This document shows, piece by piece, positions 12,681 through 64,000 of a stretch of DNA of 64,000 nt; position 1 is the first letter of the stretch; each line of letters opens with the position of its first letter. This DNA comes from Lunularia cruciata (lineage: Eukaryota; Streptophyta; Marchantiopsida; Lunulariales; Lunulariaceae). The notes under the pieces were generated by a model. The model saw nothing but the letters and a program-made list of their open reading frames with translations, had not been told where the DNA came from and made no database searches. The position numbers and the translations under genes are program-made. The stretch lies in the NCBI GenBank assembly GCA_948567375.1, contig OX419755.1, forward strand, positions 67,001 through 131,000, written 5' to 3'.

Positions 12681-12739
12681 ACAACATCCATGGTTCCTAG
12701 ATGTCCAAATGCAAGTGTTGATGGAGTACATGATGGAAT

Positions 12740-16435: not shown

Positions 16436-16449
16436 ACTACCTGCTAGCT

Positions 16450-18530: not shown

Positions 18531-18789
18531 CACCACTCAGACACTTGTGAGTCTTGTGCCTATTGAGATGATTCAAGCACATGCTGGGGGCGATGGACCA
18601 AGTGGGCATGGTATTCTTGGGACACAGCCAGTAGCTACTTGGGAGAGTGGTCTACTTGGAGTCCATCTAGGTGAGTGTGGGCTACTTGGATTGCACCCTT
18701 GGTCCACATGGAATGCAGCTAGAGGACATGTGGAGCTTGCAGCCAGAGTGGAGGGAGTTTTTCACACAGAGGTTGGGACCTCTAGTGGT

Positions 18790-19143
18790 TGAGGGCATGA
18801 CACTATTACTCCCAAGGGCCCAATGTAGCAGCCAGTCAGTACGTCTTCCACTCCTACTACAGTTATAGAGAATACTTGGGAGCCAGATCTTGGACCCAAG
18901 CTTACAAGAGAGGAAAGATGGAGGGTTTGGAGGTTCTTGAGGAGCCACATGAGTTGTTTTGCCTTCAGTATGAAGGATTTGGGTGCTCTAAAGGGACCTA
19001 GTATACGGATTGAGCTGACTAATAATACACTAGTTTTCTAATGTCCTTATCAATATAATGAGATGGAGAAGACATTGATTCAAAGCTGGAGTAGTGACCT
19101 TTTTGAGGCTGGTTTGGTAGAGACTTCACATGGAGAGTATTGT
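18790..19143 (+). pseudogene. Family C reverse transcriptase, N-terminal piece
   Basis: After a TAG (18826-18828) the frame reads the RT lead-in: LRSHMSCFAFSMKDLG, a GPSIRIELTNNT segment, then DLFEAGLVETSHGEY. The text stops at 19143, where the family D copy begins. About 510 bp of RT, including the Y-I-D-D box seen in the minus copy, are missing. The RT could not work. Confidence 0.7.
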
Positions 19144-19750
19144 AATACTCCTGGGACAGTAGAAGAGAGAAAACAAAAACTTCACACTCAAACATTCAAT
19201 GCCCCAAAGGAGCACCTTCTCTTTATTATATAGACAAAGAAGATCTCCTCCAAGGAAGCTCCACCATATGATTAGGCTCACAGATAGGTGCCATTTCAGC
19301 AAGCTCCACCCTTGGATAACTTACTTGGATGGATGACATGTTGGTCTAGGTCCTATCTAGCTTGTCAAACAAGCTTTGACCAGAGGGAATCTTTTAGGGA
19401 ATCTTCTTGTAGGAGTCTCAGAATCACAAGAGTAAGGTATCGTTGGAAAGCTCTTGACAAGACAAACTAGGGGGAGGGAAGGCTTGACTTTCCTTTTGTT
19501 GGTAATCTACACATTTTTGAGGCCTATTCATCTGTTTAGGCCTCCAAAATTGCCTTTAAAGATTTCAAGCATATTTTGGTTCCTACTCTATTAGTAGAAG
19601 TCCCCTTTTTGTGATACCTCTTTCTGATCTGTTTAGTCCATCATGTATAACATCCTTCTAAATGTTACCAAACCAATTCTCACCTTTAAATCATATGTCT
19701 AGCTATTGGTTCTAAGATTCCCTCCGGTCAAAGCTTGTTTGACAAGCTAG
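19144..19750 (-). mobile_element. Rearranged family D LTR replacing the RT core
   Basis: It starts with TGTAATACTCC and aligns with the D solo LTR at 3500-4100 along almost its whole length. It lacks the second internal repeat and ends instead with a 34-nt inverted copy of its own 19357-19390 (GGTCAAAGCTTGTTTGACAA at 19717-19750). Family C sequence on the two sides is not contiguous: about 510 bp of RT are gone. This is therefore not a clean insertion. Confidence 0.7.
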
Positions 19751-20150
19751 AACAAGCAAGTTGAGTATTTGGGTGACACTATCTACCTCGGAGGACTTGG
19801 TGTTCAGCAAACCAAGGTGGAAGCTATTGCACATATTCCTCAGCCTATGGATGTGGGTAGAGTGCAAGCATTCCTTGGGTTGGAAAACTTCTATTGCCGC
19901 TATGTTAGAGGATTTAGTGCCATTGCCAAGGCCTTGACGAAGCTGACCAAGCTTACACAGGAGTGGTGTTGGGTAGATGATCAGGAGAGAGCTTTTGTAG
20001 AGCTCAAGGAAAGCTTGACATCTGCTCCTACTTTGAGGAGACCAATCAGAGGATGACCATTTCAGGTTCATATTGATTGGAGTATATTGGGGCTTGGAGC
20101 GGTGCTCACCCAACATGATGATGAGGGGAATGAGTTTGTGGTGGCCTATG
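19751..20150 (+). pseudogene. Family C RT thumb and start of RNase H
   Basis: The open frame at 19769-20056 reads GDTIYLGGLGVQQTKVEAI, AFLGLENFYCRYVRGFS and LTSAPTLRRPI, the classic RT connection of Ty3/gypsy. A TGA at 20054-20056 follows; then the first RNase H Asp region reads VHIDWSILGLGAVLTQ. It is interrupted at 20150 (GGCCTATG) by a B LTR and resumes at 23878. Confidence 0.8.
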
Positions 20151-23100
20151 TGTGACAACCTAAAAAATATCACTTTTGCGGTAATCGGGTAAGTAAAGTT
20201 TGTTCCTGTAGAGATATGATTAAAAATTGGTCAAATACAAAGCAAAGTAATAATTTCAGTTCTTCTTGGTTGCATCTTTAAGCTCTCAGGTAGAAACCAC
20301 ACCCTGAAGAGAGTAACAAGCTCACGATCTTGACAACTTGTCATGAATACATACACACATAATCACAACATAACAAATTCTGTCCAAACAAATCTTGATT
20401 GTGATGATTCAAATTCTCCCAAAGATGGAATTTCACTACAAAGAACAACTTTGCCTTAGAATTGTGTTCCATCCCTCCACTGAAGGCACAACTTCCTTGA
20501 TCAAAATTGCTTCACATCAACTTCGCGTTGCACTCACAAATGTAGAATACTACCAACACTACAATTCCTCTCAGATCTGTCAAGGCATTGCTCTGATTGC
20601 ACACTTCACTCAAGATCACACACACAAAATGAAGATCAAGGCTATGGAATCCAACATCCACAAACACACTAACTTGCACTTTGAAATTCTCCCAACACTC
20701 ACAAACACAAACATAGAATTGATACTCAAAATCAAGCTCAAGCGACAAGCACTAAAAATAGCACTTCACTTTATCTTTCTTCGGAAATATGAATATTGAA
20801 CAACGACTTGAATGCCACTCTTAAATAGTGAAGCAAACAACACTACTAACAAAAATACCATTCTACAACAACTCTTCTAACTTGCAGATCCAAATTGACA
20901 ATGCACCCATTCATATCTGTCTCTTCAGATCTCAAATCTGTTTCTACCCCGATCCGATGTCAAGCACCTCATTAGCTTTTAAACCCAATGATCTTCCTAT
21001 TACTTCTCCTTCTTTGGGTATATCTACCGCTACTAAATCCTTCACCATTTCTACTATCTCTTCTCTACAATCTACAATTGAGGTCATGGGTAATCTATCT
21101 ACTTCCTTATCTTTTGACCCACTCTTCTCTAATGTGTTAAATATCAAGTCCAATGACACCTGAATTCCTATTTCTGCAACACCGGACTTCCTCTCCTCTG
21201 TCACACTACTCCTGATTTGCTCTAACTCTGACTTGACTAAATCTAATTGGAGACTTACATTGTTTCTTACTTCTAACATCTTCCAATCTACTCGCCCTTA
21301 ATCAGATCAGCAAAATGTTCATATCCACATCTTTGGCTTTTCTCTTTTGAGTTTCCTGCACAAGCAACTTTAACTCATGTAGACATGTTTCTTCCAATCT
21401 CCCTTCAGCTTCTGTGTTCAAGATTTCCCGCAACTTTCCTGCAACTTTTCCTACTAATTCTGACTCATAACCTCGAGATTGCTCTACCTTCAACTCTTTG
21501 CGGTACATTTTCAACTCATCTTTGTACTCAATAGCGAGCATCTTCTTTTCCTCCGCATACTATGAACTCTGTAACTCAACACTTTGTACCAGCTAGCTCA
21601 ATCTTTCTTCTTCTTGATGCTTGACTGCCAACTCTCTCTGCCATGCTTGATCCTTCCCAATTGCGCTCTTCCTCAAGCTTTCCAACTCTTGCTCCATTAT
21701 TGCGGCCATCGCCTTCACATGAATACTCTCAATGTGCACATCACTGACCTCCTCTTTCATCTTGGTCAGCAACATTGCCTTCTCTTTCAGTTCTTCAGCT
21801 TGCTTCTGTAGTTCCTTACGTCTTGACTCAACACTCTCTTGCAACTTCTCAAAAGTCTTCTTCTTCAAGATTGCATCCACCCGAAGTTCTTCAACTTCCT
21901 CGTCTCTTTGGGCTACGCGCTCTTGCAAACCCTTCACTTCAACCAGCAGATACTTTACCACCTGCAACTCATTTTTCACCTTCATATGATCTTGGGGAAT
22001 GACCTTCTGGTGCTCCTTCAACAATTCCAACAATGGAGTGACAACCTTTGATAGATACTGAATTCCGCCAAAGTTCTCTTTGTCTTTGGCCCCGTCTTTG
22101 TACTTTGCTTCTTCCATCGGCTCCTTCTGCCAAAGTTGCGATCTTTTTATCTTCAGAGACACTACTTCCGAGCTTCCTTCTTCCTTACCTACTGAAATCA
22201 GCCCCGCAAGATACTCCTTTTGTCTTTCAGCCCCCTTCTCTTCCACAACCAAGGCTACGCAATAATTCTTCTTTCCTGATACATTGTCAATCATTGCATG
22301 ACAAGCTTCACCCCTCCAACCGATTGCTAAACCTCATGTTCCCCCTCACTCTCACTTCTAGATTCCTCACTTTGTAAAGTGATTTTGTCTTCTTCTAAGT
22401 CCTCTCCTCGAGACTCTGTCTCCCCTTCAGACTTGGTTTTTGATGATGCTTCTCTCACACTCTTCTTACTCTACAGAACCAGTCTTCTCGTCTTTTGTTG
22501 TGCTGGAGGTGACTTTGCACCTTCGGGTTTACTGTGCTTCTTCTTCTTCAGACTTGTGACTTCTTCCATCTTCCACTGTCCCATCCTCAAGAAGTGATCA
22601 TCACTAGCTCATAGGTGTGCCATATATTGTTGCTCTTATTCATCTGCCTCCCATCTCAAATCAGGATGGAAATGCAACACCATGCAATGTTTCTCCTTTG
22701 CTGTCAGCAAGTTCAACCCAAAGTAGAAGTGTGCTGCAAATGGTGCAAAATAATGTGGGGGCAAACCTGTCCTCCAATTGACCACCATCTGCCTTGTTTG
22801 TTGGTGAAAACACTTTGCCCAATTCACCTTCACTCTTGTAAACATTTGGTGGAAAAAGACGCCTGTTGCATGTTCACATAAGTCATTTGGTCTGGTTTGA
22901 ACATGGCCATTATCGTCCCCATGATACTTCATTGAATCGGGTCCCAATAGAACTCCACCTTGTAACTATTTGTTGTACGTAGAGCAAAGAACAAATTTTG
23001 GATCTCCGCCGTCTCCTCTGAAGCATCACACTTCCGATAGAAAGTGATCCCCATTGGTTCTCCTACTTCCTCCCCCAACACTAACCTCCAATCCGACTCA

Positions 23101-23877
23101 GTCCATCAAGCCGGATTTCCTCTCTTCTCCTTGACTTTGGGGCCATCCTTCACAATTACTGGCGGCTATCTCTGCCATGACTCTTGGGAAATTGAAATTC
23201 CAGTTCCATGCTAAAAAGGTAATAAGAAGTATGTTCAAGACTTTGATCCTTGCTATGATGTCTAACCTACAAATGGTGAAACTTTGCACTGCCAGAGCAT
23301 TTGTGACCTTCTTTGCCATGATCTGCTCTCTCATTCTTCGGCACTAGAAAACTATTCCTTCTCTTGGACAAGACACTCTAACCCCTTTTGGATTTTGGAA
23401 AATTTCACTCTTAATGGCTTCCTGACACATATTACTGTAGGACGACTACTCAGAGGGATTGGAAATCTACTTGACATATTCAACTTGTCCTTGCGCAATC
23501 CCACTTTTATATTACCCCAAATTGCAGTCATTTTTCAGTCAATTTCAAAATCAACTTCCCCTTCTTTTGGGTGTCACTGTCAAGACATGCTTCTTCTATC
23601 TCCACCGTTTCTTGAAGTGTACTTTCTTGCCACACACCAAGGTTGTTAGATGGTCTTTGTATCAGCCTTTGCTTCCTGATCCAAAGACGATGCTCTTTGG
23701 ACTTCTTTCTTTGTACCCTTCTCCTAAGTACCTCCATCATTGGATCCGATCTTGACTTCTTTGGATTTCCTCCAAAGTCACTTCTGTCCATTCCTTCTTT
23801 TGCAATTTAGCTTTCTTTTTTTACTTCTTCTCCCAAATACTAATAAACAAAAATAAACAAAAAACGTGGGCACCACA
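20151..23877 (-). mobile_element. Family B long-form solo LTR (3.7 kb, minus) in family C RNase H
   Basis: On plus it begins TGTGACAACC and ends GGGCACCACA. The flanks are CTATG (20146-20150) and TTATG (23878-23882), a 5-bp duplication with one C/T change. The uninterrupted target is read in the minus C copy near 59940. A solo LTR is therefore well supported. It is the closest relative of the 12740-16435 copy. Confidence 0.9.
20944..23800 (-). pseudogene. U3-encoded coiled-coil protein of family B, copy 3
   Basis: On the minus strand: a start near 23791 (MDRSDFGGNPKK), a basic block (EVLRRRVQRKK), then a break-rich middle including WAKCFHQQTRQMVVNW, LPPHYFAPFAAHFYFGLNLL and HFHPDLRWEADE (22947-22636). 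The long coiled-coil frame is at 21593-22294 (ELLKEHQKVIPQDHMKV; KAMAAIMEQELESLRK). It ends with LEKSGSKDKEVDRLPM near 21150. Several frameshifts and a TGA in the A-stop-W site make it non-coding now. It confirms the block order seen in the other LTRs. Confidence 0.65.
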
Positions 23878-25056
23878 TTATGCTAGTTGCTCCAACAATT
23901 CAGCGGAGGCAAAGTATAGTTCATATGAGGGAGAGTGCTTGGCAGCAGTTTGGGCAGTAGCACATTTCCAATGTTACCTATTAGGTAACCTCTTCACTCT
24001 CATCACTGATCATCAACCACTAAAATGGTTGATGGAGTCCGACAAACTTTTAGGAAAGCTTGCATGATGGGCTCTAATTTTACTAGAGTATGATTTCTTG
24101 GTTATTCACAGACCTGGAGTGGTGAAGCGTGATGCAGATAGGTTGAGTGGAAACCCATGTCCCACCTAGTAGGATCAGACCGGAGCACGTTGGCATGGTG
24201 AGATAGATGAGGAGATGGTGCCAGGTTGGCATGCATTTGCCTTTCTATGTATATCTTTTGAGGCTTAAATGGTATCTCTCTCAACACATACAAGAGGAGT
24301 TATTGAGGTCACAAATCCAGAGAGTGAAGATATTGGTACAGTTCAATGAGACATTCATGATGATGTCTTAGTGATGGACTATCTTTGCACTGGTGTTGTG
24401 GGTGGCACAATTGGGGCTAAGGAGAGAAACTATGTTCTTCAGCAAGCCCAATGGTTCAAATTGGAGAGCATACACATTTTGCGTGTATGGGAGGATGGTA
24501 GAGTGTGAGTAGTACCACTTCCATCTTAGAGACCATAATTGGTCTGTCATGCTCATGAAGAGCTAGGACATTTTGGAGTCAAGCGTACATATAGCTTACT
24601 CCAGAGTCACTATTGGTGGCGTGGTATGCAGACCAAGGTACAATAGTTTGTTGCCAGATGTGTGGTTTGTGACCGAGTTAGAGCATCATTCAATGCTCCT
24701 ACGCCATAGTTACACCCATTACCTATCATAGGATTGGGTTACCGTTGGAGTTTGGACTTTGCTAGACCTTTACTGCTGACTATGAGACATCATCTGTATG
24801 TTTTGGTGATGGTGGAGCACTTCTCCAAGTGGATTGAGTTGGTGGTACTTCCTGACAAGTCTATGAAGGGACAACTTACTCATTCTTGGATTGAGTTCTT
24901 AGTCATTTTGGTGCACCAGCTGAGATTTTGACTGAGCAGGGTACAGAGTTCTGGGGGGAGTTTCAGGTCTTGTGTGACAAGGTTTTGATTGATCACCGTA
25001 CTACCTCCCGAGAGCACCTAAGGCAGATGGCTTAGCAGAGAGAGTGGTTCAAACGG
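23878..25056 (+). pseudogene. Family C RNase H and integrase, first part, copy 1
   Basis: RNase H continues: YASCSNNSAEAKYSSYEGE, then LITDHQPLKWLM with the third catalytic Asp kept. Stops include TGA for CGA (about 24065), two adjacent TAGs at 24167-24172 where the minus copy has CAG CAG, TAA at 24536 for CAG, and TAG at 24707 for CAG. The integrase H2C2 domain reads HAHEELGHFGVKRTY then CVVCDRVR. The core begins RWSLDFARPL and passes VEHFSKWIELVVLP. It is cut at 25056 by insertion E in the middle of the core (ERVVQT). Confidence 0.8.
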
Positions 25057-25484
25057 TGTTGTCAAGAAAATAATCCACACGTAGTATTGGTGCAATTTGA
25101 TGTGAGTTTCTTTTTCATGTTAGTGAACTCAAGGGTTTCATGTTATGGTGAAACCGGAAGTTGTTTTGTGTTCCTATAAACTCAAGGATTTTCTCTTGTG
25201 TTACATCAAGGATTTTCTTTTATGTTACATAAGCTCTGGGCTTATTTGTATGTCACTTAAGAGCAGGAGTTTGTTTATGTTATTGGGGTCTCAAGAGTAT
25301 TTGAGTTAGTGGTAGTAGCAAGGGGTTTGGGGGCATCAAGAAAAAAGAAAAAGAAAAGCCTGAACAGGTCTGGAGAAAGAAAAGGGGAAGGAGAGGATAT
25401 TTTTGGGAGAAAGAGGCCTGGACAGGGGGAGAGGAATTTTGGAAGGGTATTTTTTTTTGTGACTGGTGTGGATCAGGAGAGGAG

Positions 25485-26249
25485 TCTGAATGAGAAGTGG
25501 CAAAGGGATTGGAAGGGAAAATGTTCCCCAGGAGGGAGTTTAGACAGTGAGGAGTTCTGGAAAATCAGTAGAGCTGGCACAAATTTTCCGGAATTGACAT
25601 GGGTTTTGAGGAGAAATGTTTGAAGGAGTTTAGACAATGAGGAGTTTTGGAAAATCAGTAGGGCTGGCAGGAAGCTTAGTGGATTGACATGGGTTTTGAG
25701 GAGAAATGTTTGCAGGAGTTTAGTCAATAGGAGTTCCGGGAAGATAAGTAGGGCTAGCAGTGGAGTTCTCCTGAAGTGGCAAAGGGATTTGAAGGAAAAA
25801 TGTTTCCCAAGAGAGAGTTTAGACAGTGAGGAGTTTTGGAAAATCAATAGGGCTGGTAGGAAGTTTTGGGAATTGACATGGGTTTTGAGGAGAAATGTTT
25901 GTAGGAGTTTTAGTCAACAAGAGTTTTGGGAACATCAGTAGGGCTGGCAATGGAGTTCTCGGGAAGAGGCAAAGGGATTTGAAGGAAAAATGTTTCCTAA
26001 GAGGGAGTTTAGACAATGAGGAGTTTCAGAAAATCAATAGGGCTGGCAGGAAGTTTCAGGAAGTGACATGGGTTTTGAGGAGAAATGTTTGCAGGAGTTT
26101 TAGTCAGCAGGAGTTTTGGAAGATCAGTAGGGCTGGCAGGAAGTTTCGTGAATTGACATGGGTTTTGAGGAGAAATGTTTGTAGGAGTTTAGTAAGCAGA
26201 AGTTTCAAGAAGATCAGTAGGGCTGGCAGTGTAGTTTTTGAGAAGGGGT
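25485..26249 (+). repeat. Minisatellite with alternating 90/190-bp spacing
   Basis: The anchor GACATGGGTTTTGAGGAGAA occurs at 25596, 25686, 25875, 26065 and 26155, spaced 90, 189, 190 and 90 bp, and again in part at 28225 beyond the inserted B LTR. A second sub-unit, GTTTAGACAGTGAGGAGTTTTGG, accounts for the longer spacing. Because all spacers stay near multiples of 3, long accidental frames appear on both strands (for example 25473-25847 minus). I do not regard them as genes. Confidence 0.8.
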
Positions 26250-28124
26250 TGTGACAACCCGGCAAATATTACTTTTGCGGTCATCGGGTAAGTAAAGTTT
26301 GTTCCAGCAAAGATATGATTCAGAATTGGTCAAATACAAAGTCAAACAGTAACATGTAGTTCTTCTTGATTTCTTCTTTAATCTCTTAGGTAGAAACTAC
26401 ACCCAAAAGAGAGTAACAAGCTCACAATCTTGACAACTTGTCACAAATACACCCACACATAATCACAACATAGTGAATTCTGTCCAAACAAATCTTGATT
26501 GTGATGATTCAAATTCTCCCAAAGATGGCATTTCACTACAAAGAACAACTTTGCCTTAGAATTGTGTTCCATCCCTCCACTGAAGGCACAACTTCCTTGA
26601 TCAAAATTGCTTCACATCAACTTCGTGCTGCATTCACAAATGTAGAATACTACCAACACTACAATTCCTCTCAGATCTGTCAAGGCATTGCTTCAATGTA
26701 CTTCACTCATGATCAAACATACAAAATGAAGATCAAGACTATAGAATCCAACATCCACAGACACATTGACTTGCACTTCAAAATTCTCCACACACTCACA
26801 AACACAAACATAGAATTGACAATCAGAATTAAGCTCAAGCAACGAGCACTTAAAACCAACACTTTGCTTTATCTATGTTCAGAAATTTGAATACCGAACA
26901 ATATAGTTCTGCAAATGCTCCCTTTAAATACTAAAGCAAATGGCAGTTCTTCCTACTGATGCACCGCTTCTTCCTACCTGCAGATCCAAATTGACAATCC
27001 ATCTCTTCATATCTCAAAATAGTTTTTCCTCCAATTTGATGTCTACCTCATCATTGTTTTCAAACCCGATGATCTTCCTATTACTTCTCCTTCTTTGGGT
27101 ATATCTAATTCTACTAACTCCTTCACTATTTCTACCACATCTACACTACAATCTACAATTGAGGTCATGGGTAATCCTTCTACTTCGTCATCTCCCGACC
27201 CAATCTTCTCTAATGTGTCAAATAGCAAGTCCGATGACACCTGAATTCTTACTTCTGCAACATTGGTGTTAACTATTATCAATTCCTTTGCTAATTCTAC
27301 TATATCCTCATCAAGAATTGTAATTGAAAGCATGGGTACACTATCTACGCCTTCAATTTGTAACCCACTTTCTCATAATCTCTCAAGTAACTGACTCAAA
27401 GACACTTATTGTCTGATCTTGCACTTTGGGTTTATTCACTACTACTACTTCTCCTTCAATTCCTATTCCATCTTCAATCTGAACTGAAATTGAAGTCATA
27501 GCTATCCTAACTATCTATTCTTTTTCTATCCTAACTCTCTCTAATGCCTCAGGCAAGATTCTCGAAATCATCTTCATTGCACTTTGAGGTCTGACTATCT
27601 CAAATATAGTCATCTTTGTCTTGAGGTGAAGAAGCTTCTAACCTGACGTTGTGTAAACCTGAAGTCCAAAGTCCGAAGTCAGAAGTCTCAAGTCCGAAGT
27701 CTCAAGTCTCAAGTCTCAAGTCCGACGACCGAAGATCAGAAGACACTAACTTGCTATGTACATCTACTCTTGAAACTTCAAATGCTTGCAACTTCTTCTA
27801 CAAACCTTCAAACTCTACAATTTTGGTGGCAACAGAAAGCCCTGAACGAGACGCTTCCAACAATACATAACATACTTGATTTGAACTTGTGAACATTGAG
27901 ATATAGCCCCCGAAAAAATCTCAACCTGTAACTTCCATTCCTCCTTCGGGTCTGCCCTCTTTCAATCCTGGCTGAGTTAGTCTTCATCTGACACAAAGTA
28001 GACTTCCTAGGGCTTGATCAAAATACAAATTTCCTTTGATTTATTCTCCATTTGGTTTCAATTTAGTTTCAGCAAGGCAGTTCTTCTTCAAAACTCGTCC
28101 AAAATGAAAAATATGGGTACTACA
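26250..28124 (-). mobile_element. Family B short-form solo LTR (1.9 kb, minus) inside insertion E
   Basis: On plus it begins TGTGACAACCCGG and ends GGGTACTACA, with flanks GGGGT (26245-26249) and GGGGC (28125-28129), a 5-bp duplication with one change. It shares about 1.1 kb of R-U5 and the C-terminal end of the U3 reading frame (27043-27333 minus: VSSDLLFDTLEKIGSGDDE) with the long form. It has a different U3 start, including ten-base GAAGTCTCAA-like repeats at 27660-27735. Confidence 0.85.
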
Positions 28125-29717
28125 GGGGCAAAGGGATGTGAAGGGAAAATGTTTCCCAGGAGTGGAGTTTAGACAGTGAGGAGTTTTGGAAGATCAGTAG
28201 GGCTGGCAGGAAGTTTTGTAAATTGACATGGGTTTGAAGAGAAAGAATTTGAACAGAAGGGTTAAGACATTGAGAGTAGGAAGTTGAAAGGGAAGACAAG
28301 ACGAGGGTTTGGAGAAGAATCAAGAGCAAGGCAAGGGAGAAAATAATAAATACAGAATGTTGAGTTGGAAGGACAAAGGATCGAGAAGAGGGTTTCTGAA
28401 AAACAGAGAATATCAAAATTGGTTTTGAGAAAAAGGAAGAGAGAGAGGGTTAGAACTGTAAGGGAAGAAAAATCAAGGGAAACATCTGCGGAAAGACAAG
28501 GTCTAGACTGATCAGGGAGGTTGAAGGAGAGGGGAGTTTTTCAAGTGTTTGTTGGCTTGGTCTGTGACAAGATAGAGGAAGGAGAGAGAAATGCTTCGAG
28601 AGGCCTTTGGGCAGTGACATGACCAAAGAGAGAAATTTTGAAATTGAAGAGCTGATGGGTGTGGATGCAGGGAGAACTTTCAAGGGTATAGCTGACATGT
28701 GACATGAATGATTGAGCAAATGCTAGCACATGGCTTTGAAAACAGAGAGTCAAACATAGTTGTGGACTGAACTGCTAATAGAAGTTTTTTGAAAGGTGAG
28801 GTGCTTTGCAACAACAAAAAGAAAGCAAAGAGGGAGAAGTATTTTCTGAATGGAGTCTGAAGGGAGAAGAGGACTGGTTCAAAGGAACAAGAGATTGGGG
28901 AATGTCTCAATGGTTTTCTGAGAAGTGGAAAATTGAGGAGCTGAGTGTGTGGAGACAGGGTCTTTCACAAAAAATGTGGCGGAAGCTATTTGGCAGTGGT
29001 TGGAACAGTTAAGACATCAAGAATTGATTTACGTGAGCAGGAGATCTAAGGATGTTTCATGAAAGGATCTTTGGCTGAGAACAAAAACCTTTGCAACAAA
29101 GCATTGATGGGAGTGCTGCTGGGAGGTGAAGGAAGAGGTCTGGAGGGTGAGTTGTCTTTACTGTTATCGGACAAAGTGTGTGGGAAAAGCGCCAGGTGAA
29201 ATGATTTTCTGTCATAATTTAGTGCAAACATGTATGAACTGGAGTTGTTTGGCTTGTCCAAACTTGTGAACCTTGCAGCTGAATTTTTTATGAATGAAAA
29301 ATCCTAAGACAATGTGTGTTCAATCTATGACTAGCATGGAGGAAACTCTATTTTAAGAGCTCTTAGTCTGTCTATATGAATGGTTTGATTTAGTAGCCTC
29401 GGTGCCGGGTTGAGCCCAAATAGAATACTATTTGTTGTTTGTAAAATTCCCAGCCCATTTTTAGGAACCGTCTAGTCCAAAACCATAGCTGAAACTGCGT
29501 GGGCTGGCCAGTATTGTGAAGGCCAAGGACAAACCCTTGAGAAACCCAACCTCAAGAAACAAAGAAAAATTCTTATAGAGCTCAGATTTCTAACACACCA
29601 AGAATAAGAAGAGAATGTAAGTCTATGAGAAACTCTAAATCAACTACAATAAAGACAAACTTAGCACAAGCAGCCATGTGCCCGGTGCACTCTCAAGGCC
29701 AAAGAAATTCCCTGACA

Positions 29718-30248
29718 ACGGTGAAGAGAGGATTGCAAAAGTATGGTTTGTAGAGAGGCCACTTGGGAGATTGGGATCTTCAATTACCTTGGTTGGCCAT
29801 GGGCTATCCGTTTGGCCGGCAATCCTCCTAAGCATCCTTCTCTCCATACTTTCTGACAAGGAGGAGGTTATAGACCTTTGATCCATCAATTTCATCCAAT
29901 AAACTATGTGTATCTATAGTAGACAACACCAATGACATTTGATGTTTCTTGAGAGTGCGTGAGGTTTTGCCATCTGGAGTCCTTGTGTTAGAAGGATGTG
30001 ATGGTGTTGTTTGGAAGGATCATGTGTGCAATTGTGCGCCATGCTACCTCCCAAACATTGATGGTACTATGGACCCAAGCTTGGCACTTGTACGTGCAAG
30101 CTTGAAGTGTATGTCATGTGGCTCTTTTGGTGAAGCTGCTACTATGTTAGTGTGTGATAGTTGTTTGAGAAGATGGCATATGGCATGTATGACTCCTCTC
30201 CTCACGGTGGTTCCTCAAGGATAGTGGTTATATCCTAAATGTACTTGA
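29718..30248 (+). pseudogene. Family C integrase end and PHD finger, copy 1
   Basis: After insertion E the integrase core resumes (ACGGTGAAGAGAGG, then KYGL.RGHLGDWDLQLPW in broken frame). A frame from 29949 gives the integrase C-terminal fold (LRVREVLPSGVLVLEG) and a PHD finger from about 30108 to 30242. Its ligands are C-x2-C, C-x2-C, H-x2-C, then Y-x2-C; the seventh ligand Cys is Tyr here. TAG at 30222-30224 replaces the CAG found in the minus copy. A PHD finger typically binds the histone H3 tail. The reading ends at TGA 30246-30248. Confidence 0.8.
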
Positions 30249-30417
30249 CCTATAGCTAGTTCATTATTTATATGGTATAGATTGCAGATAGGCGACTAAT
30301 GATAGGGCTCCATAGGACCGGGCCTCTTGATCTTTGCCCATTATAAGGTATACCATATACTTAGAGTAGATGGCTATATGGAGTCAGAGGGATCTAACCG
30401 CTAGCTAGGAAGGCAAT

Positions 30418-31079
30418 TGTGGCACTTTAGAGTCTATGTATGACTTATGTGTGAGTTGTGCTTCTATAACGTATGATGTTGACAATGATGCATGTTGTGT
30501 AGCAATGTATATACACACGATAGTTGTCACGCCATTTGTAGTGTCACATCTAGATTGCTTGGACACTGGAGTTCCAGTGATAGTAGTTAGAGTTATTTCA
30601 GTAGTTTCTCAAAGGCTACTTTCCAATGGTCAGATTTTGTGTTTGAGGTACTGACTTCACGGTGGGGCCTACTGCCACTTTGCACCATTTGCACCACCAT
30701 CAAGTGTACCATCAGCAGAACTATTAGGGTTTCAGACCTAGCTCTAGTCCAAGGGGTATACTTTCGAAGTGCAGCTCTAAAGAGCTCACTTCTTTGATGT
30801 TGAGCCTTTGAGTTCTTGGCTATGGTGGATAGAGACCGGCAAGCGTCACCTAGATTCTCTTAGCAAGAGTGGGTGTGGCTTGACTGTAATCAATGCCTAG
30901 TTGTTGGTAGTTTATAGAGTGACAGATCAAGTACTGATTTGAGTTGAGTTGAGAGTGGTAAACAATCTGATTATTGTGGCACTTTAGAGTCTATGTATGA
31001 CTTATTTGTGAGTTGTGCTTCTATAGTGTATGATGTTGACATCAATGTATGTTGTGTAGCAATGTATATATGCACAACA
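30418..31079 (+). mobile_element. Family C 3' LTR, copy 1 (662 bp)
   Basis: It begins TGTGGCACTTTAG and ends TATGCACAACA. It has the same length as the minus copy (57199-57860). The first about 105 bp (30418-30522) recur as the last 105 bp (30975-31079), an unusual direct repeat at both ends of one LTR. A degenerate polypurine stretch precedes it. It directly abuts a family A fragment at 31080. Confidence 0.85.
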
Positions 31080-51752: not shown

Positions 51753-51756
51753 TTTT

Positions 51757-54330: not shown

Positions 54331-54339
54331 AGTCTTAAT

Positions 54340-55035: not shown

Positions 55036-55050
55036 TGGCACAAAGGGTAC

Positions 55051-57093: not shown

Positions 57094-57198
57094 GCAACTT
57101 GCAAAAGTCTTCCAAACTAGCAAAACTTCTCAAAATCTGGCCAAATAGCAAAACTCCTCCAAATCTGGCCAAAATCTGACAAAAAATCCTTAAGGTTG
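57094..57198. other. Short repeat stretch between family A and family C
   Basis: There are three degenerate copies of a unit of about 36 bp like CAAAACTCCTCCAAATCTGG. A related sequence starts at 10336 next to the other A half. It may be the remains of the sequence into which C inserted, or filler DNA from a rearrangement. Confidence 0.5.
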
Positions 57199-57860
57199 TG
57201 TTGTGCATATATACATCGCTACACAACATACATCATTGTCAACATCATACACTATAGAAACACAACTCACACATAAGTCATACATAGACTCCAAAGTGCC
57301 ACAATAATCAAATTGCTGAACAATTTCAACTCAACTCAACTCAGATCAGTACTTGATCTGTCACTCTATAAACTGCCAACAACTAGGCACTGATTATAGT
57401 CAAGCCACACCCACTCAAGCATAGAGAATCCAGGTGACGCTCACCGGTCTCTATCCACCATAGCTAGGAACTCGAAGGCTCAACATCAGAGAAGTGAGCT
57501 CTCTGGAGCTCACTTTGAAACTATACCCCTTGGACTCGAGCTAGCACTGAAACCCTAATGGTCTCACTGATGGCACACTCGACGGTGCAAACGGTGCAAA
57601 GTGACGGTGGGCCCCACTGTGAAGTCAGTACCCCGAACACCAAATCTAACTGTCGGAAAGTAGTCCCTGAGAAATTGCTAGAATAACTCTAACTACTATC
57701 ATTGGAACTCCAGTGTCCGAGCAACTAGATGTGGAACTACAAATGGCGTGACAGCTATCGTGCATATATAGATTGCTACACAACATACATCGCTGTCAAC
57801 ATCATACACTATAGAAGCACAACTCACACATAAGTCATACATAGACTCTAAAGTGCCACA
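57199..57860 (-). mobile_element. Family C 3' LTR, copy 2 (662 bp, minus)
   Basis: The minus strand begins TGTGGCACTTTAGAG and ends TATGCACAACA, with the same length and ends as 30418-31079. The terminal 105-bp direct repeats are 57756-57860 and 57199-57303. A clean polypurine tract, AGGGGGGCGA on minus (57861-57870), precedes it. Confidence 0.88.
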
Positions 57861-58029
57861 ATCGCCCCCCTAGCTGGCGGTTAGGTCCCTCTAACTCCAG
57901 ATAGCCATCTACTCTAAGTATATGGTATACCCTCTAATGGGCAAAGATCAGGAGGCCGGGTGCTATGGAGCCCCATCATTAGTCGCCTGTCTGCAATCTA
58001 TACCATATAAAGAATGAACTAGCTATAGG
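57861..58029 (-). other. Family C 3' untranslated region and polypurine tract
   Basis: It lies between the polyprotein stop (TGA, 58030-58032) and the LTR start. It ends with CTAGGGGGGCGAT on the minus strand, the plus-strand primer for reverse transcription. No frame is present. Confidence 0.7.
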
Positions 58030-58329
58030 TCAAGTACATCTAGGACATAACCACTGTCCCTGAGGAACCACCGTGAGGGGAGGAGTCATACATGCCATAT
58101 GCCATCCTCTCAAACAACTATCACACACTAACATAGTAGCAGCTCCACCAGGAGAGTCACATAACATACACCTCAAGCCTGCACGTACAAGTGCCAAGCT
58201 TGGGTCCATAGTACCATCAATGTTTGGAAGGTGGCATGGCGCACAATTGCGCACATGATCCTTCCAAACAACACCATCACGTTTTTCTAACACAAGGACT
58301 CCAGATGGCAAAACCTCACGCACTCTCAA
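58030..58329 (-). pseudogene. Family C integrase C-terminal domain and intact PHD finger, copy 2
   Basis: The 99-residue frame reads RVREVLPSGVLVLEKRDG (integrase C-terminal beta fold) and NCAPCHLPN. The PHD finger covers residues 54-98 (58170-58036): C54-x2-C57-x11-C69-x2-C72-x4-H77-x2-C80-x14-C95-x2-C98, with W93 and W76 at the usual positions. All eight zinc ligands of the C4HC3 set are present. PHD fingers usually read the N-terminal tail of histone H3, so the domain may guide integration, in the place where chromoviruses carry a chromodomain. The domain is open, but the integrase upstream is broken. Confidence 0.88.
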
Positions 58330-58371
58330 GATAGTGCGGCCTGTAGAAACATCAAGTGTCGTCGGTGCTGT

Positions 58372-59290
58372 CTACTGTAGATATACATAGTTGCATGGAT
58401 GAAATTGACGGATCAAGGGTCTATAACCTCCTCCTCGAATGGTAGCATAGCGTAAAGTATCTCTATGCTGAGCAATCGCCAAGTTCTCAAAGGCCATTGG
58501 CATCACTCTCTGAAAGATCTCTGCCCGCTGAGAACATGCGCTCATCCATACATCGGGGTCATCCAAGTCCAAAACTACAGTAGCATCTTGACGAATGGCT
58601 GCAGGTAAATCTGGATCTCATCCATAGAGTAGAAAGTATGGAGAGAAGGATGCTAAGGAGGCATGCCGGCTGAACCGATAGCCCATGGCCAACCAAGGTA
58701 ACTGGAGATCCCAATCTCCCAAGTGGCCTCTCTGCAAACCATACTTTTGCAATCCTCTCTTCACCGTCTGAACCACTCTCTCTGCTAAGCCATCTGCCTC
58801 AGGGTGATCTCGGGATGTAATACAATGATCAATCAAAGCCTTGTCACACAAGACCTGAAACTCTCAAGAACTCTGTACCCTGATCAGTCAAAACCTCAGT
58901 TGGTGCACCAAAATGACTAAGAACTCAATCCAGGAACGAGTAAGCTGTCCCTTAACTAGACTTGTCAGGAAGTGCCACCAACTCAATCCACTTGGAGAAG
59001 TGCTCCACCATCACCAAAACATACCGATGATGTCTTGCAGTCAGCGGTAAAGGTCCGGCAAAGTCCAAACTCCAACGGTAACCCAATCCCATGATAGGTA
59101 ATGGGTGTAACTGTGGCGTAGGAGCATTGAATGATGCTCTAACTTGGTCACAAACCACACATCTGGCAACAAACTGCTGTACCTCGGTCTGCATACCGCG
59201 CCACCAATAATGACTCTAGAGTAAGCTATACGTACGCTTTACTCCAAAATGTCCTAGCTCCTCATGAGCATGATGGGCCAACTGTGGTCT
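58372..59290 (-). pseudogene. Family C integrase, copy 2
   Basis: Leftward: HH half (AHHAHEELGHFGVKRTY, about 59280-59225), CC half CVVCDQVR (ORF 59194-58952), core RWSLDFAGPLPL and VEHFSKWIELVALP, then a frameshift, then DHPEADGLAERVVQTVKRG (58851-58618) with the catalytic Glu, and LPWLAMGYRFS. A further frame (58572-58372) reads MDLDDPDVWMSACSQRAEIF and covers the linker to the C-terminal domain. The Asp of the second catalytic site lies in the shifted part near 58880 (LTDQGTEF). Inactive by frameshifts. Confidence 0.82.
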
Positions 59291-59513
59291 CTATGATGGA
59301 AGTGGTACTACTCGCACTCTACCATCCTCCCATACACGCAAAACGTGTCTACCCTCCAATCTGAATCGTCTGGCTTGCTGAAGAACACTGTCTCTCTCCT
59401 TGGCCCCAACTGTGCCACCCACAACACCAGTGCAAAGATAGTCCATCACTAAGACATCATCATGAATGTCTTGCTGAACTGTACCAATATCTTCACTCTT
59501 TGGAGCTGTGACC

Positions 59514-60000
59514 TCAATAACTCCTCCTGTATGCGCTGAGAGAGATACCACCAAAGCCTCTGCAAATACACAGAAAGGCCAATGCATGCAAACCTGGCAC
59601 CATCTCCTCATCTGTCTCACCATGCCAACGTGCTCCGGTCTGATCCTGCTGGCTGGGACATGGGTTTCTACTCAACCCATCTGCATCACGGTTCACCACT
59701 CCAGGTCTATGAACAACCGTGAAATCATACTCCTGTAAAATCAAAGCCCATCGTGCAAGCTTCCCTAAAAGCTTGTCGGACTCCATCAACCACTTCAGCG
59801 GCTGATGATTAGTGATGAGAGTTAAGGGGTTACCAAATAGGTAACATCGGAAAGGTGCTACTTCCCAAACTGCTGCCAAGCACTCTCCCTCATATGAACT
59901 ATACTTCACCTCCGCTGAATTGTTGGAGCGACTAGCATAGGCCACCACAAACTCCTTCCCCTCATCATCATGTTAGATGAGCACTGCTCCAAGCCCCAAC
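59514..60000 (-). pseudogene. Family C RNase H, copy 2
   Basis: The frame 59948-59514 reads MVAYASRSNNSAEVKYSSYEGE (catalytic Glu), LITNHQPLKWLM and HRPGVVNRDADGLSRN. The first Asp (VHTDRSMLGLGAVL) is at the end of the RT frame, followed by TAA where copy 1 has CAA. In copy 1 the D-H-Q motif is kept; here it is N-H-Q, a G-to-A change of the third catalytic Asp. The downstream linker lies at 59623-59291. Confidence 0.82.
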
Positions 60001-61060
60001 ATACTCCGATCAGTGTGAACCTGAAATGGTCGTTCCCTGATTGGTCTCCTCAAAATAGGAGCAGATGTCAACCTCTCCTTGAGCTCTACAAAAGCTCTCT
60101 CCTGCTCATCTCCCCAACACCACTCCTGTGTAAGCTTGGTCAGCTTCATCAAGGCCTTGGCAATGGCACTAAATCCTCTAACATAGTGGCAATAGAAGTT
60201 CGCCAACCCAAGGAATGCTCGCACTCTGCTCACATCCGTAGGCAAAGGAATACGTGCAATAGCCTCCACCTGGGTTTGCTGAACACCAAGTCCTCCGGGG
60301 TAGATAGTGTGACCCAAATACTCAACCTGCTTGTGGAAGAATCTACACTTCCCAAGATGTAGTTTGAGTCCATGAGATCTCAACCTCTCAAACACCTCCA
60401 ACAACTATCTCTCATGCTCTTCCACAGTAGTGCTAGAAACCAAATGTCATCAATATAGCACCGAGCAAAATCCAATCCAGCTAGGATCCTATCCATGACC
60501 CGCTAGAACTCAGCAGGAGTGTTCTTCAACCCGAATGGTAAGAACCTCCACTGATATAACACATCCTTGCCGTGAGGATCAATAGCCCAAAATGTTATCT
60601 TGGACTTATCCTCCTCCTTGATTGGCAACTGATGATATCCGACTCGAAGATCCAAAGTACTGAAGATCTTTGCATGCCCAATCGCATCAAAAATCTCCTC
60701 CGGTGTAGGCATGGCATACCGATCAGCCCAAGTCTGTCGGTTGATTGGACGGTAATCTTCACACATCCGCCTATCTGTATAGTTGCCATGCATATCCTTC
60801 TTGGCTGGCATCATTGTCGCTGATGCATACTCTCCATGTGAAATCTCCACCAAACCAGCCTCAAAAAGGTCACTACTCTGGCTCTGAATCAATGTCCTCT
60901 CCATCTCACTATATCGATAAGGACGTCGGAAAATTGGTGTGTTGCTAGTCAGCTCAATCCGTATACCAGGTCCCTTCAGAGCACCCAAATCCTTCATATT
61001 GAAGGCAAAACAACTCGTGTGACTCCTCAAGAACCTCCCAACCCTCTGTCTTTCCTCTCC
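59973..61060 (-). pseudogene. Family C reverse transcriptase, copy 2
   Basis: The frame 61030-60503 covers palm and fingers: RRMCEDYRPINRQT, KIFSTLDLRVGYHQLP, WRFLPFGLKNTPAEF, then TAG where the family has Gln. The next residues RVMDRILAGL and CYIDDI contain the catalytic Y-I-D-D (about 60440). After a frameshift the thumb and connection are open at 60404-59973 (LKLHLGKCRFFHKQVEYLGH; FLGLANFYCHYV). The Y-I-D-D box and absence of a chromodomain separate C from families A and B. It copies the RNA genome to cDNA; dead here. Confidence 0.88.
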
Positions 61061-61138
61061 AGTAAGCTTGGGTCCAAGATCTAGCTCCCAAGTATCCTCT
61101 ATAACTGTAGTAAGAGTGGAAGACGTACTGACTGGCTG

Positions 61139-62473
61139 CTATACTAGGCCCTTGGGAGCAATAGTGTCATGCTCCCGACCACCAGAGGTCCCAACCTCTG
61201 TGTGAAAAACTCCCTCCACTCTGGCTGCAAGCTCCACACGTCCTCTGGCTGCATCCCATGTGGACCAAGGGTGTAATCCAAGTAGCTCACGCTCACCTGG
61301 ATGGACTCCAAGTAGACCACTCTCCCTAGTAGCTACTGGATGTGTCCCAAGAATACCATGTCCACTTAGTCCATCACCCCCAACATGTGCATGAATCGTC
61401 TCGATAGGCACAAGGCTCACAAGTGTCCAAGTGGTGATGCCTATCAAGTGCATCCTACGCTGCTTTGCCAAGCCAAGGCTCACAATCCAGGTCAAACAGT
61501 TCAGGTCCATAGCCTGACCTAACACCTGACGCTTGGATGCCTCTGACACTATTGGAACAGCGGTAATACCGGTGCAGAAACCCATCGCCCGCTCTCTCTC
61601 ATCAGCATTGGGCTCCACCAACTGCTGTAACTGTGAGTCCCAAACAAGTCCAAGTCCTCCCTCTCGAAAAGCATGAGAGCCTGCGAAACTCATGAGTGTG
61701 GGAAATGCAACTCTAGGCTATCCAACTAGGTTCACCACTGCCATAGGTGACCTATCAGCCACTACCATTGTCTAAGACTGATGCCCAGCATCCAAGATAT
61801 CATCAACAAGAATGAGGTCTAGTCGTTGAATCCCATCATAACTACGTTGTAGAACCTCTTTGGGTAAGAAGTTCGTCCACCAAAGACGAAGACGATGAGC
61901 CCATGATCCCACTCTGGCTGCATCTAACAATACAGCAGGTCCCATCCAAGAATGGACCTAATGTGTACTCGCCACCACTCTAGTGCGAGAATCTCCCATC
62001 AAAGGAACGTTCTCCAAAGGGTAAGCTGGAGAAACAGACTGATGAACCTAGAGATGTCGTAGTATCTGTAACATCTCCCAAAACACACCAGAACGAGGAT
62101 CCTAAAGACCCAAACCACGGCCCGTACGTGTATGTCCCTAACATGGCCATCCAGAAATCACCAAGTGAATAGGCCCATGTCTCTCTAGGTCATGCGCCTC
62201 CAGTAAGGAAATGTCTCCTAGTAGGGGCTTTTGGTAACCTCTGACTGCTGACATCGGTAATAACTCTAGATACCAATAGGCCAAGTGTGCCACATGATGT
62301 AGAGAGACTTGCCTAGTAGTCTCATCTCTCTCTACATACAAGTACCTCTGTACTCGTAAACCCGCCTGTAACACCGCAACTAGTCCGGTGTTGATCCCAC
62401 CAAACAACTCCAATAGGCATATCCCCTCTACTGGATACTGCCAAGCAATGAGTACGGTATCCAAAGGTATCAA
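61139..62473 (-). pseudogene. DNMT3-type cytosine-5 DNA methyltransferase domain in family C, copy 2
   Basis: One continuous frame, interrupted only by TAG codons. Motif I is GICLLELFGGINTGL (about 62425-62380); motif II YLYVERDETTRQ; motif IV GWPC then TAG (62146-62138); next GHTRTGRGLGL, TAG, DPRSGVFWEMLQIL. Motif VI is LENV (62017-62006), motif VIII LLDAARVGSWAHRLRLWWTN (61930-61871), motifs IX-X ERAMGFCTGITAV and RQVLGQAMDLN (61593-61499). The A-H-R-x-R-x-x-W-x-N form of motif VIII and the PCQ-SRxG-like region resemble DNMT3 rather than DNMT1 or CMT. The collinear order excludes DRM. It sits between protease and RT in the polyprotein. The product would methylate cytosines, perhaps in the element's own cDNA. 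Six TAG stops within the domain inactivate it. Confidence 0.9.
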
Positions 62474-62638
62474 AGTAATCGCCTTTGGAAGCTCATCTTC
62501 ACACTCATCTCCTGATGGTACAAAGGCTCCACTCCAAGCCTACTGCACCAACTGATCTGCATGTTGCTACAATGCCTCCTCTGAACTCCACAATAGAACA
62601 TCCAAGGTGGATGGAACAATCCCACTTGTACTCCAAAG

Positions 62639-63160
62639 TCAAGTGATTTCCTCTAGTACAAGAGTATCCTTTGCATGGGTGTTCCCCTCCAACAAGTCAC
62701 CAGGCCAAGTAACTGCACCGCTGAAAGCTAAAACTGATGCTGTCATGGTCCCGGACTGTAGTGAGCCAAGACTGGCACTATTGAAGTGTACTAGTAGGCG
62801 ACATACCCGTCCCTCACCAGACTGCCAACCAGGTCTATAAGAGGTTATCTCCTCCCAATAGTCAATGCTGAAACCCATAGGGTATAACACTGCTCCCCCA
62901 ACTAGCACATCATATGACTCAACTATCGTCGCAATAGCCTGAGCTCTCACCACCGAGCTATCAGTCGGATGACCAGGCTGAACCTAGACAACAAGCTCTC
63001 CACGTGTGATGTACTGTGTCAAACCACCACCAAGAGATGTCTGGATCTGAAATGGACACCTCTCCACATCGATCTTCCGTAACTCCAGACCGACAACTGC
63101 AGCCTTCCCCAACATAAGGGGCTGCGTACCAGAGTCTAACAAGACTCTGTGGTGTATAGA
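62639..63160 (-). pseudogene. Family C aspartic protease, copy 2
   Basis: The active site LDSGTQPLMLGKAAVVGLE is read from about 63142 in a frame different from the upstream gag frame; D-S-G is intact at 63136-63128. It continues RCPFQIQTSLGGGLTQYIT. The ORF 62953-62639 gives the second half (MGFSIDYWEEITSYRPGW). The spacer to the methyltransferase is short. It would mature the gag-pol polyprotein. Confidence 0.75.
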
Positions 63161-64000
63161 CCTTCCCTAAAGGTCCCACCAAACAAAAAATCCCCCTCTG
63201 GTTATCCAATAGGACAACACCAGATATAAACCACGCTCTCTCAAAGGCCGGTCTAGCTGGCAACTCCTCCAGTCTAGCCGCTGCTGCCTGCCATAAACCA
63301 CTAGTCGCTGAATGGATCCCATGCTCCTCAACCAAGTCAGCTCCACTACCAACCACCTTTGCTCTAGTAGTAGGAACTGCACCATCCCTACTCTCACACA
63401 ACGTGACAGCCAACCGGAACATTGGGGTTGGGTCAACTCCCAATGTAAACATGTCACTGGCTGAAAACAAAGGATGCCGCATAATCAGTTGAGCCGCCCC
63501 CAACATCATGCTAGACTCAGTCTGTGTAGTAGTAGGTGGCTGACTAGCAAGTACTCCATCAAGTACTCCATCACTACCTACTACACTTGCACTGGGACGT
63601 CTAGGAACCATGGATGTCGTCTGTAATGCCTCAGATAGCGTGAAAGATTGGGGAAGTCTGACTTGTCCCCCAACCTTTCCTCTCTGTGGGTCCAACTCCA
63701 CTGATGCTCCTCTAGGCTCTGGAGCACGTACTGCACTCCTAGTCACTCCTGCAGATGCATCCACCTGTGTTGCTCTGCACATGAAGTCCAAAGCATCTCT
63801 ATCACCAGCATATGAGGTGGAAGCCTCAGCACCCAAATCTGATCTCCTTTGAGCAATAGCCATACTAGCCAATCTCTGCTCCAACTGCTCAATCCGAGTA
63901 GCCATAGCTGTGTCAGAAGTAAGGGCAAGTACTGCACTCCTACTAGGTGTAGATCCTCTACCACCACCTCTACCACCTTGTCCTCCATGAACTGGAGCTC
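63160..64000 (-). pseudogene. Family C gag C-terminus and linker, copy 2 (cut by window end)
   Basis: The open frame 63905-62961 starts with a short coiled coil (IEQLEQRLASMAIAQRR) and continues with low-complexity Ser/Thr/Pro sequence (SQPPTTTQTESS) and FERAWFISGVVLLDN just before the protease. Upstream, at 63930-63990, the minus strand encodes a Gly/Arg tract (GGQGGRGGGRG). No CCHC knuckle is seen in either copy, so RNA binding may rely on this RGG-like tract. The frame reads on into the protease area out of register. Confidence 0.65.

What the first reader, a model, noticed from the sequence alone, without database searches (positions are those of the whole stretch)
61139..62473. A plant Ty3/gypsy retrotransposon that carries its own DNMT3-type DNA methyltransferase
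Seen: in both C copies (here and at 17437-18530) the motifs I, II, IV, VI, VIII and IX-X of a cytosine-5 methyltransferase occur in collinear order, between a D-S-G protease and a Y-I-D-D reverse transcriptase. Key strings are LLELFGG, GWPC, LENV, AHRLRLWWTN and RQVLGQAM. Known: methyltransferases inside retrotransposons have been reported from dinoflagellates and charophyte algae; I know of no described land-plant example. Inference: the element could mark its own cDNA or new insertions, changing how the host silences it. Both copies are dead, but the same domain in two copies shows it belonged to the mobile lineage and was not a chance insertion.
Basis: partly seen in the sequence, partly recalled or inferred. 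Interest (0 to 1): 0.95.

Follow-up and report, generated by a model that had tools for sequence, protein, structure and literature searches.

The report
Plant retrotransposon carrying a DNA methyltransferase
Two dead copies of a plant jumping element carry the gene for a DNA-methylating enzyme of the DNMT3 type; similar elements occur in liverworts, peat mosses and algae, although one published paper says land plants lack them.

Summary
A profile of relatives finds a cytosine-5 methyltransferase (MTase) at two places in the window only: 62470-61451 (440.6 bits, one frame, stops all TAG) and 17515-18516 (broken frames). Motif order is canonical and the best solved match is DNMT3A. It lies between the aspartic protease and reverse transcriptase of a Ty3/gypsy element whose integrase ends in a PHD finger. 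It is no chance insertion: 17 of 50 first-search relatives are Marchantia polymorpha, others Calypogeia and Sphagnum, and one relative on a 9.3-kb contig (L014) has both long frames open.

DNMT3-bearing Gypsy elements are known from Klebsormidium, so this is a new variant of a known kind. Self-methylation of cDNA is inferred, not shown. No structure prediction, host-genome survey or host-DNMT3 tree could be run.

The parts
57199..64000 (-). Copy 1 of the element, cut off in gag by the window end
   Evidence: Collinear with copy 2 in six aligned blocks, 6-11% divergent
62961..63998 (-). gag part of copy 1 (open piece; its last part is out of frame with the protease)
   Evidence: 42.7% identical to Marchantia P0004 over 293 aa
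62984..63166 (-). Aspartic protease piece with DSG at 63136-63128
   Evidence: Open frame; homologous stretch of L014 is Asp_protease_2, E=7.8e-4, 20.5 bits, below its cut-off of 24.3
61451..62470 (-). DNMT3-type cytosine-5 methyltransferase domain, copy 1
   Evidence: Family profile 440.6 bits; DNMT3A E=1.2e-8; PF00145 19.8 bits
61139..61141 (-). In-frame TAG between MTase and RT, followed by CAG CCA
   Evidence: Same place and register in copy 2 (TAG CAG CCA) and in L014 (TAG CAA TCA)
60503..61138 (-). Reverse transcriptase, first part, same frame as MTase
   Evidence: RVT_1 E=2e-8; 57.7% identical to L014
59514..60404 (-). Reverse transcriptase end and RNase H (frame-shifted from the first part)
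   Evidence: RT_RNaseH 3.6e-24, RT_RNaseH_2 3.5e-12
58372..59215 (-). Integrase in three pieces
   Evidence: Integrase_H2C2 2.2e-6; rve 7.4e-4, below its cut-off; 57-79% identical to L014
58030..58371 (-). C-terminal PHD finger
   Evidence: PF00628 E=6.7e-11; 63% identical to L014, 79% to Marchantia P0040
57199..57860 (-). 3' terminal repeat, TG...CA, preceded by a G-run; holds a 103-base repeat at both ends (57862-57760 and 57305-57203)
   Evidence: Same layout and end point in copy 2
11294..31079 (+). Copy 2 of the element, interrupted by stretches of about 3.7, 3.7 and 4.7 kb; 5' end not recognised
   Evidence: Blocks
17515..18516 (+). MTase domain of copy 2, frame-shifted
   Evidence: Family profile pieces of 120.5, 119.9 and 75.0 bits
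18826..18828 (+). In-frame TAG of copy 2 followed by CAG CCA

Best explanation
The window holds two decayed copies of a Ty3/gypsy LTR retrotransposon of a plant, probably a liverwort. Its lineage carries a non-rearranged DNMT3-type C5 methyltransferase as the last enzyme of a gag-protease-MTase polyprotein, and a PHD finger at the end of integrase. Shown: domain identity and order, presence of the same domain in the same place in many relatives, catalytic residues kept, and an in-frame UAG CAR YYA between MTase and RT in both copies and one intact relative. Inferred: most ribosomes stop at the UAG and make Gag-PR-MTase, a few read on and make RT-RNaseH-integrase-PHD; MTase is thus made at Gag level and packed into the particles, where it methylates newly made cDNA, most likely at CG, so that new copies arrive already marked; the PHD finger steers insertion by reading histone H3. 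The window copies died by deamination of methylated CG and CHG.
For: DNMT3 type: family profile against PDB gives DNMT3A 3.2e-26, a DRM 1.3e-13 (4onj; DRM by recall) and DRM2 4e-12, matched over their C-terminal part, HhaI 5.7e-7; none of the 58 listed chains is named DNMT1. Lineage property: 17 of 50 relatives in the first search are Marchantia polymorpha, with Calypogeia and Sphagnum. Constraint: catalytic Cys in 52 of 54 and motif VI Glu in 53 of 54 near-complete domains; against Marchantia P0004 the MTase is 65% identical while gag is 43%, the protease linker 55%, and the tail after it aligns over 36 residues only. Stop: TAG CAG CCA in both copies, TAG CAA TCA in L014, same register, flanks diverged; CAR-YYA is the documented plant-virus readthrough signal (PMC2194720, PMC2754532, passages). 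Many unnamed relatives end about 100 residues after the MTase. Decay: differences per background C are 99/414 at CG, 155/847 at CHG, 233/4442 at CHH. A K. nitens or dinoflagellate element MTase methylates CG in yeast according to the abstract and discussion of PMC5890265 (SymbioDIRS is the one named).
Against: No activity was measured. Both window copies are dead and differ as neutrally decaying DNA (MTase dN/dS 0.74 with kappa 1, 1.13 with kappa 8). Relatives were found by searching with the MTase, so how many sister elements lack it is unknown. Readthrough is not shown: some Marchantia gene models join MTase and RT through predicted introns (P0006, P0009, P0012), P0034 has MTase and RT in one frame with no stop, and no unusual RNA fold follows the stop in either window copy (z 0.26 and 0.38; L014 -2.29). 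Three of 54 domains have Glu for the Pro of motif IV. The SymbioLINE MTase did not methylate DNA in yeast. The MTase is less conserved than RNase H and integrase.
Confidence: 0.5

Rival explanations
1. The element lineage is as described, but the MTase acts in trans on host chromatin or on rival elements rather than on its own cDNA, with the PHD finger or Gag determining where it goes.
For: The domain is constrained and DNMT3-like. PHD relatives in PDB include UHRF1, KDM5, CHD4, AIRE and PHF21A types that bind the H3 tail (names; binding mode recalled).
Against: Position in the gag-protease frame fits work inside the particle better. The K. [quoted passage not shown]
Confidence: 0.2
2. The MTase fold is kept for another purpose, such as binding or modifying RNA, and does not methylate DNA.
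For: The SymbioLINE MTase gave no DNA methylation in yeast and RNA methylation was raised by its authors (PMC5890265 discussion). Three of 54 domains have Glu instead of Pro in motif IV.
Against: Catalytic Cys and Glu are almost invariant; the nearest fold by sequence is the DNA enzyme DNMT3A, while tRNA C38 MTase/DNMT2 chains match at 8e-8 or weaker against 3.2e-26.
Confidence: 0.15
3. The TAG before RT is ordinary decay or a plain end of ORF1, and RT is made from a spliced or separate message, not by readthrough.
For: All 8 stops in copy 1's MTase-RT frame are TAG, as decay of CAG would give. Marchantia models predict introns there (P0006, P0009, P0012).
Against: The stop is at the same place in both copies and in the otherwise open L014, in one register, with CAR-YYA kept while flanks diverge.
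Confidence: 0.25
4. A host DNMT3 pseudogene landed once in an element and the two window copies merely share that chance insertion.
For: Only two copies lie in the window and both are dead.
Against: The domain is in one frame with gag or protease in public proteins of several bryophytes and many metagenome sources with catalytic residues kept.
Confidence: 0.01

Closest known systems
KnitGypsy-Dnmt3 of Klebsormidium nitens (de Mendoza et al. 2018, PMC5890265; abstract, sections 9 and 11 and term passages read)
   Same: Dnmt3-type, non-rearranged MTase inside an LTR Gypsy element of a streptophyte; purifying selection reported there. Its repeats are described as DIRS-like; both window copies show a B-A-B repeat layout at the 3' end.
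   Different: There the MTase is reported in the Pol ORF; here it ends the gag-protease frame before a conserved TAG. The one K. nitens protein found (P0093) groups with P0044, P0074 and P0076 (71-83% identity) and is only about 33-39% identical to the other families; P0044/74/76 form a deep separate group in the tree. The paper does not mention a PHD finger (0 occurrences).
SymbioDIRS-Dnmt3 and SymbioLINE-Dnmt of Symbiodinium (same paper)
   Same: Retrotransposons with a C5 MTase.
   Different: DIRS and LINE classes, not Gypsy; dinoflagellate host.
Plant host DNMT3 (PpDNMT3a/b; Yaari et al. 2019, PMC6453930, passages read)
   Same: DNMT3-type MTase with canonical motif order in non-flowering streptophytes.
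   Different: Host genes bear a C-terminal DUF3444; no DUF3444 is listed for L014. No host DNMT3 sequence was at hand for a tree.
Soybean SIRE1 and murine leukaemia virus (named in PMC2194720, passages)
   Same: Reading frames in register parted by a stop that is suppressed.
   Different: In SIRE1 the stop lies before an envelope-like frame; in MuLV after gag with a pseudoknot. Here protease and MTase both precede the stop.

Membership tests
DNMT3 methyltransferases | C5-MTase motifs I to X in linear, non-rearranged order | tested here: met
   Motif strings in order; DNMT3A matched by the family profile in the same order in three stretches
DNMT3 methyltransferases | Closer to DNMT3 than to DRM, DNMT1 or bacterial enzymes | tested here: met
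   PDB sequences only: DNMT3A 3.2e-26, DRM 1.3e-13, HaeIII 1.4e-8, HhaI 5.7e-7, no chain named DNMT1. No tree with host enzymes was made
DNMT3 methyltransferases | Catalytic Cys of motif IV and Glu of motif VI | tested here: met
   52 of 54 and 53 of 54 near-complete family members; window copy 1 has both
DNMT3 methyltransferases | De novo DNA methylation activity | not testable with these tools
   Needs an assay
Plant host DNMT3 | C-terminal DUF3444 | tested here: not met
   Pfam scan of L014 ORF1 and ORF2 lists none
DRM methyltransferases | Rearranged motif order | tested here: not met
   Motif I precedes IV, VI, VIII and X
Ty3/gypsy LTR retrotransposons | RT-RNase H-integrase order with rve core | tested here: met
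Ty3/gypsy LTR retrotransposons | Two LTRs and a target-site duplication | tested here: inconclusive
   3' repeat TG...CA with G-run found; no 5' end recognised in copy 2, copy 1 cut by the window end; duplications not tested
KnitGypsy-Dnmt3 | MTase in the Pol ORF of a Gypsy element | tested here: inconclusive
   Gypsy met; but MTase lies before the TAG, in frame with gag and protease. The published element was not at hand as DNA
KnitGypsy-Dnmt3 | DIRS-like repeat structure | tested here: inconclusive
   3' half B-A-B seen in both copies; 5' half not seen
KnitGypsy-Dnmt3 | Same MTase group as the K. nitens protein | tested here: not met
   P0093 nearest to P0044/74/76, a separate deep group; whether P0093 is itself a KnitGypsy-Dnmt3 was not established
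UAG readthrough signals of the TMV type | UAG CAR YYA | tested here: met
   Both window copies and L014; consensus in PMC2754532 and PMC2194720
UAG readthrough signals of the TMV type | Measured readthrough | not testable with these tools
   Needs a reporter assay

The most novel reading that the evidence does not exclude
An old lineage of green-plant and algal retrotransposons carries both a DNA-methylation writer (DNMT3) and a histone reader (PHD). In land plants the writer is made at Gag level ahead of a leaky UAG and marks the cDNA inside the particle before insertion, so the element arrives in the genome already methylated. The writer changed place within the polyprotein during evolution: before RT in one branch, between RNase H and integrase in the other.
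Probability: 0.3. Interest if true: 0.85.

Novelty: new variant of a known kind. Interest (0 to 1): 0.64.

Why it matters
[quoted passage not shown] Liverwort and Sphagnum proteins and this window contradict that for land plants at large, though not for tracheophytes. Marchantia is a genetic model, so it becomes testable why a transposon should methylate DNA when its host uses methylation to silence it. The Gag-side position with a readthrough-type stop gives a concrete prediction about how much MTase is made and where it acts.

Tried and rejected
Chance insertion: rejected by the relatives. Gymnosperm or fern host: no support. The last protein search, with another Gypsy family of the window, gave 5 hits: best a Marchantia protein (66% over 27% of the query), the other four unnamed at 27-30%. 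TAG as a sense codon: not tested as such; excess C/T-type differences at CG and CHG explain the stops, and a TGA interrupts the frame at 62641-62639. Selection between the two copies: none visible; the RT-C/RH row of that call was read in a wrong frame (7 and 6 stops) and is dropped; the PHD row gave dN/dS 1.92 and 2.84 on few changes. IMG/VR scan: 13 loci, 25-40% over partial stretches, not followed; the second genome contigs locus, L015, 31%, not followed. Own-genome search: not completed. Structure prediction: not accepted, so no fold test. ARAGORN and Rfam on the window: no gene, no match. Ten paper searches, two of them with no paper at all, listed no land-plant element of this kind by title or abstract, and the passages I read in nine papers described none; the library lacks most subscription papers and all preprints.

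Full report
What is there. On the minus strand from 64000 down to 57199 lies a decayed Ty3/gypsy element, cut off in gag by the window end. In its open pieces Pfam finds RT, RNase H, the integrase zinc-binding domain, a sub-threshold integrase core and a C-terminal PHD finger. Between the DSG protease and RT lies a cytosine-5 methyltransferase at 62470-61451. A profile of 11 relatives finds the domain only here and in a second copy at 17515-18516 on the plus strand, and finds nothing in one shuffled and one reversed window. Copy 2 is interrupted by other sequence between about 11294 and 31079.

Type of enzyme. With X at stops, copy 1 matches DNMT3A at E=1.2e-8. The family profile matches DNMT3A at 3.2e-26, 4onj (a DRM by recall) at 1.3e-13, DRM2 at 4e-12, HaeIII at 1.4e-8 and HhaI at 5.7e-7; none of the 58 listed chains is named DNMT1. 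DRM is matched over its C-terminal part, as expected of a rearranged enzyme. PF00145 is just below its cut-off for the dead copy (19.8 against 22 bits) and clear for the intact relative (45.9 bits). No structure was predicted and no tree with host DNMT3 could be made.

Relatives. The first protein search gave 50 proteins: 17 are Marchantia polymorpha by name, and Calypogeia fissa, Sphagnum troendelagicum, Sphagnum fallax, Closterium and Monoraphidium also appear. The second gave 181, of which 120 were listed, adding Riccia sorocarpa, Marchantia paleacea, Sphagnum tenellum and Klebsormidium nitens. Of 165 sequences scored (163 proteins, window copy 1, L014), 59 covered at least 280 profile positions and 54 covered 300 and entered a tree. 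The window falls in a fully supported group of 15 rows with Marchantia, Calypogeia and unnamed rows; within it the order is open. Catalytic Cys is kept in 52 of 54 and motif VI Glu in 53 of 54 rows; three rows have Glu for the motif IV Pro.

Constraint. Against Marchantia P0004 the MTase (65%) is more conserved than gag (43%) and the protease linker (55%), and the tail after it aligns over 36 residues only. Against L014 it is 49%, above gag (26%) and the protease linker (39%), below RT (58-63%), RNase H (72%), PHD (63%) and integrase (57-79%). That is the pattern of a working domain. The two window copies themselves show neutral decay: MTase dN/dS 0.74 or 1.13, depending on kappa.

The stop before RT. 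L014 is a 9,285-base contig filed under a cyanobacterial genome bin; its content is that of a eukaryotic retrotransposon. Its ends share 127 identical bases, so it closes as a circle. The gag-protease-MTase frame and the RT-RNase H-integrase-PHD frame are both open and in register, parted by one TAG followed by CAA TCA. Both window copies have TAG CAG CCA at the same point, in register. CAR-YYA after the stop is the documented readthrough signal of tobacco mosaic virus and kin (PMC2194720, PMC2754532, passages), and soybean SIRE1 is cited there as using stop codon suppression. I infer that MTase is made with Gag and that RT comes from readthrough. Against this: P0034 has MTase and RT in one frame without a stop, three Marchantia models join them through what look like predicted introns, and no unusual fold follows the stop in the window copies. 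The seven other TAGs of copy 1's MTase-RT frame are probably decay.

Two architectures. In P0037 and P0043 the order is RNase H-MTase-integrase-PHD; in P0038 and P0049 MTase directly precedes integrase-PHD; in P0047 and P0050 MTase follows RT. In the tree P0037, P0038 and P0043 fall in one group of six rows (100/99), apart from the rows with MTase before RT. Integrase pieces of P0037, P0038, P0043 and P0049 are 35-56% and their PHD 41-52% identical to the window's, while another Gypsy integrase of the window matches the same four at 28-34%. The lower ends nearly meet, so the integrase argument is modest; the shared PHD is the stronger link. Either the MTase changed place within one PHD-bearing lineage or it was taken up twice from related sources. 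Which of the two I cannot tell.

Terminal repeat. After a G-run (decayed in copy 2) the element ends in 662 bases, TG...CA, with a 103-base repeat at both ends, 94% identical in copy 1; copy 2 has the same layout and similarity stops at the same point. The legend in section 9 of PMC5890265 calls the K. nitens repeats DIRS-like. Whether this is an LTR with internal repeats or half of a split repeat cannot be told without a 5' end.

Host and decay. The copies differ at 604 of 6059 sites: 487 transitions, 117 transversions. C/T-type differences per background C count are 99/414 at CG, 155/847 at CHG and 233/4442 at CHH, the mark of CG and CHG methylation and so of a plant. CpG observed/expected is 0.28 in the window. 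A second Gypsy family of the window has its best relative in Marchantia. I take the host to be a liverwort, at about two in three.

Known and new. DNMT3 in a Gypsy element is known from K. nitens (PMC5890265; abstract, sections 9 and 11 and passages read). A 2025 survey repeats the streptophyte and dinoflagellate cases but names the classes LTR Copia and DIRS (PMC12344493, passages). A 2019 paper says transposon methylases are absent from land plants such as tracheophytes (PMC6338049, passages). My ten paper searches showed no land-plant case. New here, as far as I can see: land-plant members, the Gag-side position with a leaky-type stop, the PHD partner, and two domain orders.

Noticed in passing
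window 8571-9078 and 51247-51754: Inverted pair of 508 bases, 98% complementary, younger than the other long inverted pairs of the window (83-93%).
   Followed up: no
window 53637-57117: Another Gypsy element in nearly open pieces; its protease-RT region is 66% identical to Marchantia P0164 over 27% of the query, other hits 27-30%.
   Followed up: partly
window 12732-45826, families D1-D9: Many copies of repeat families whose open pieces look like long coiled gag-like proteins; no relatives were sought.
   Followed up: no
L014 1-9285: A circularly closing eukaryotic retrotransposon contig sits in a cyanobacterial genome bin; P0052 of the same MTase group is named Candidatus Obscuribacterales. 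Both look like mis-binned eukaryotic DNA.
   Followed up: partly
P0048 (Closterium sp. NIES-53): Gene model with a Copia RT domain (PF07727) and an MTase of this family at its C-terminal end; may be a chimeric model or an independent Copia capture.
   Followed up: no
P0093 (Klebsormidium nitens), P0044, P0074, P0076: A deep, separate group of element-type MTases (71-83% identity to P0093).
   Followed up: partly
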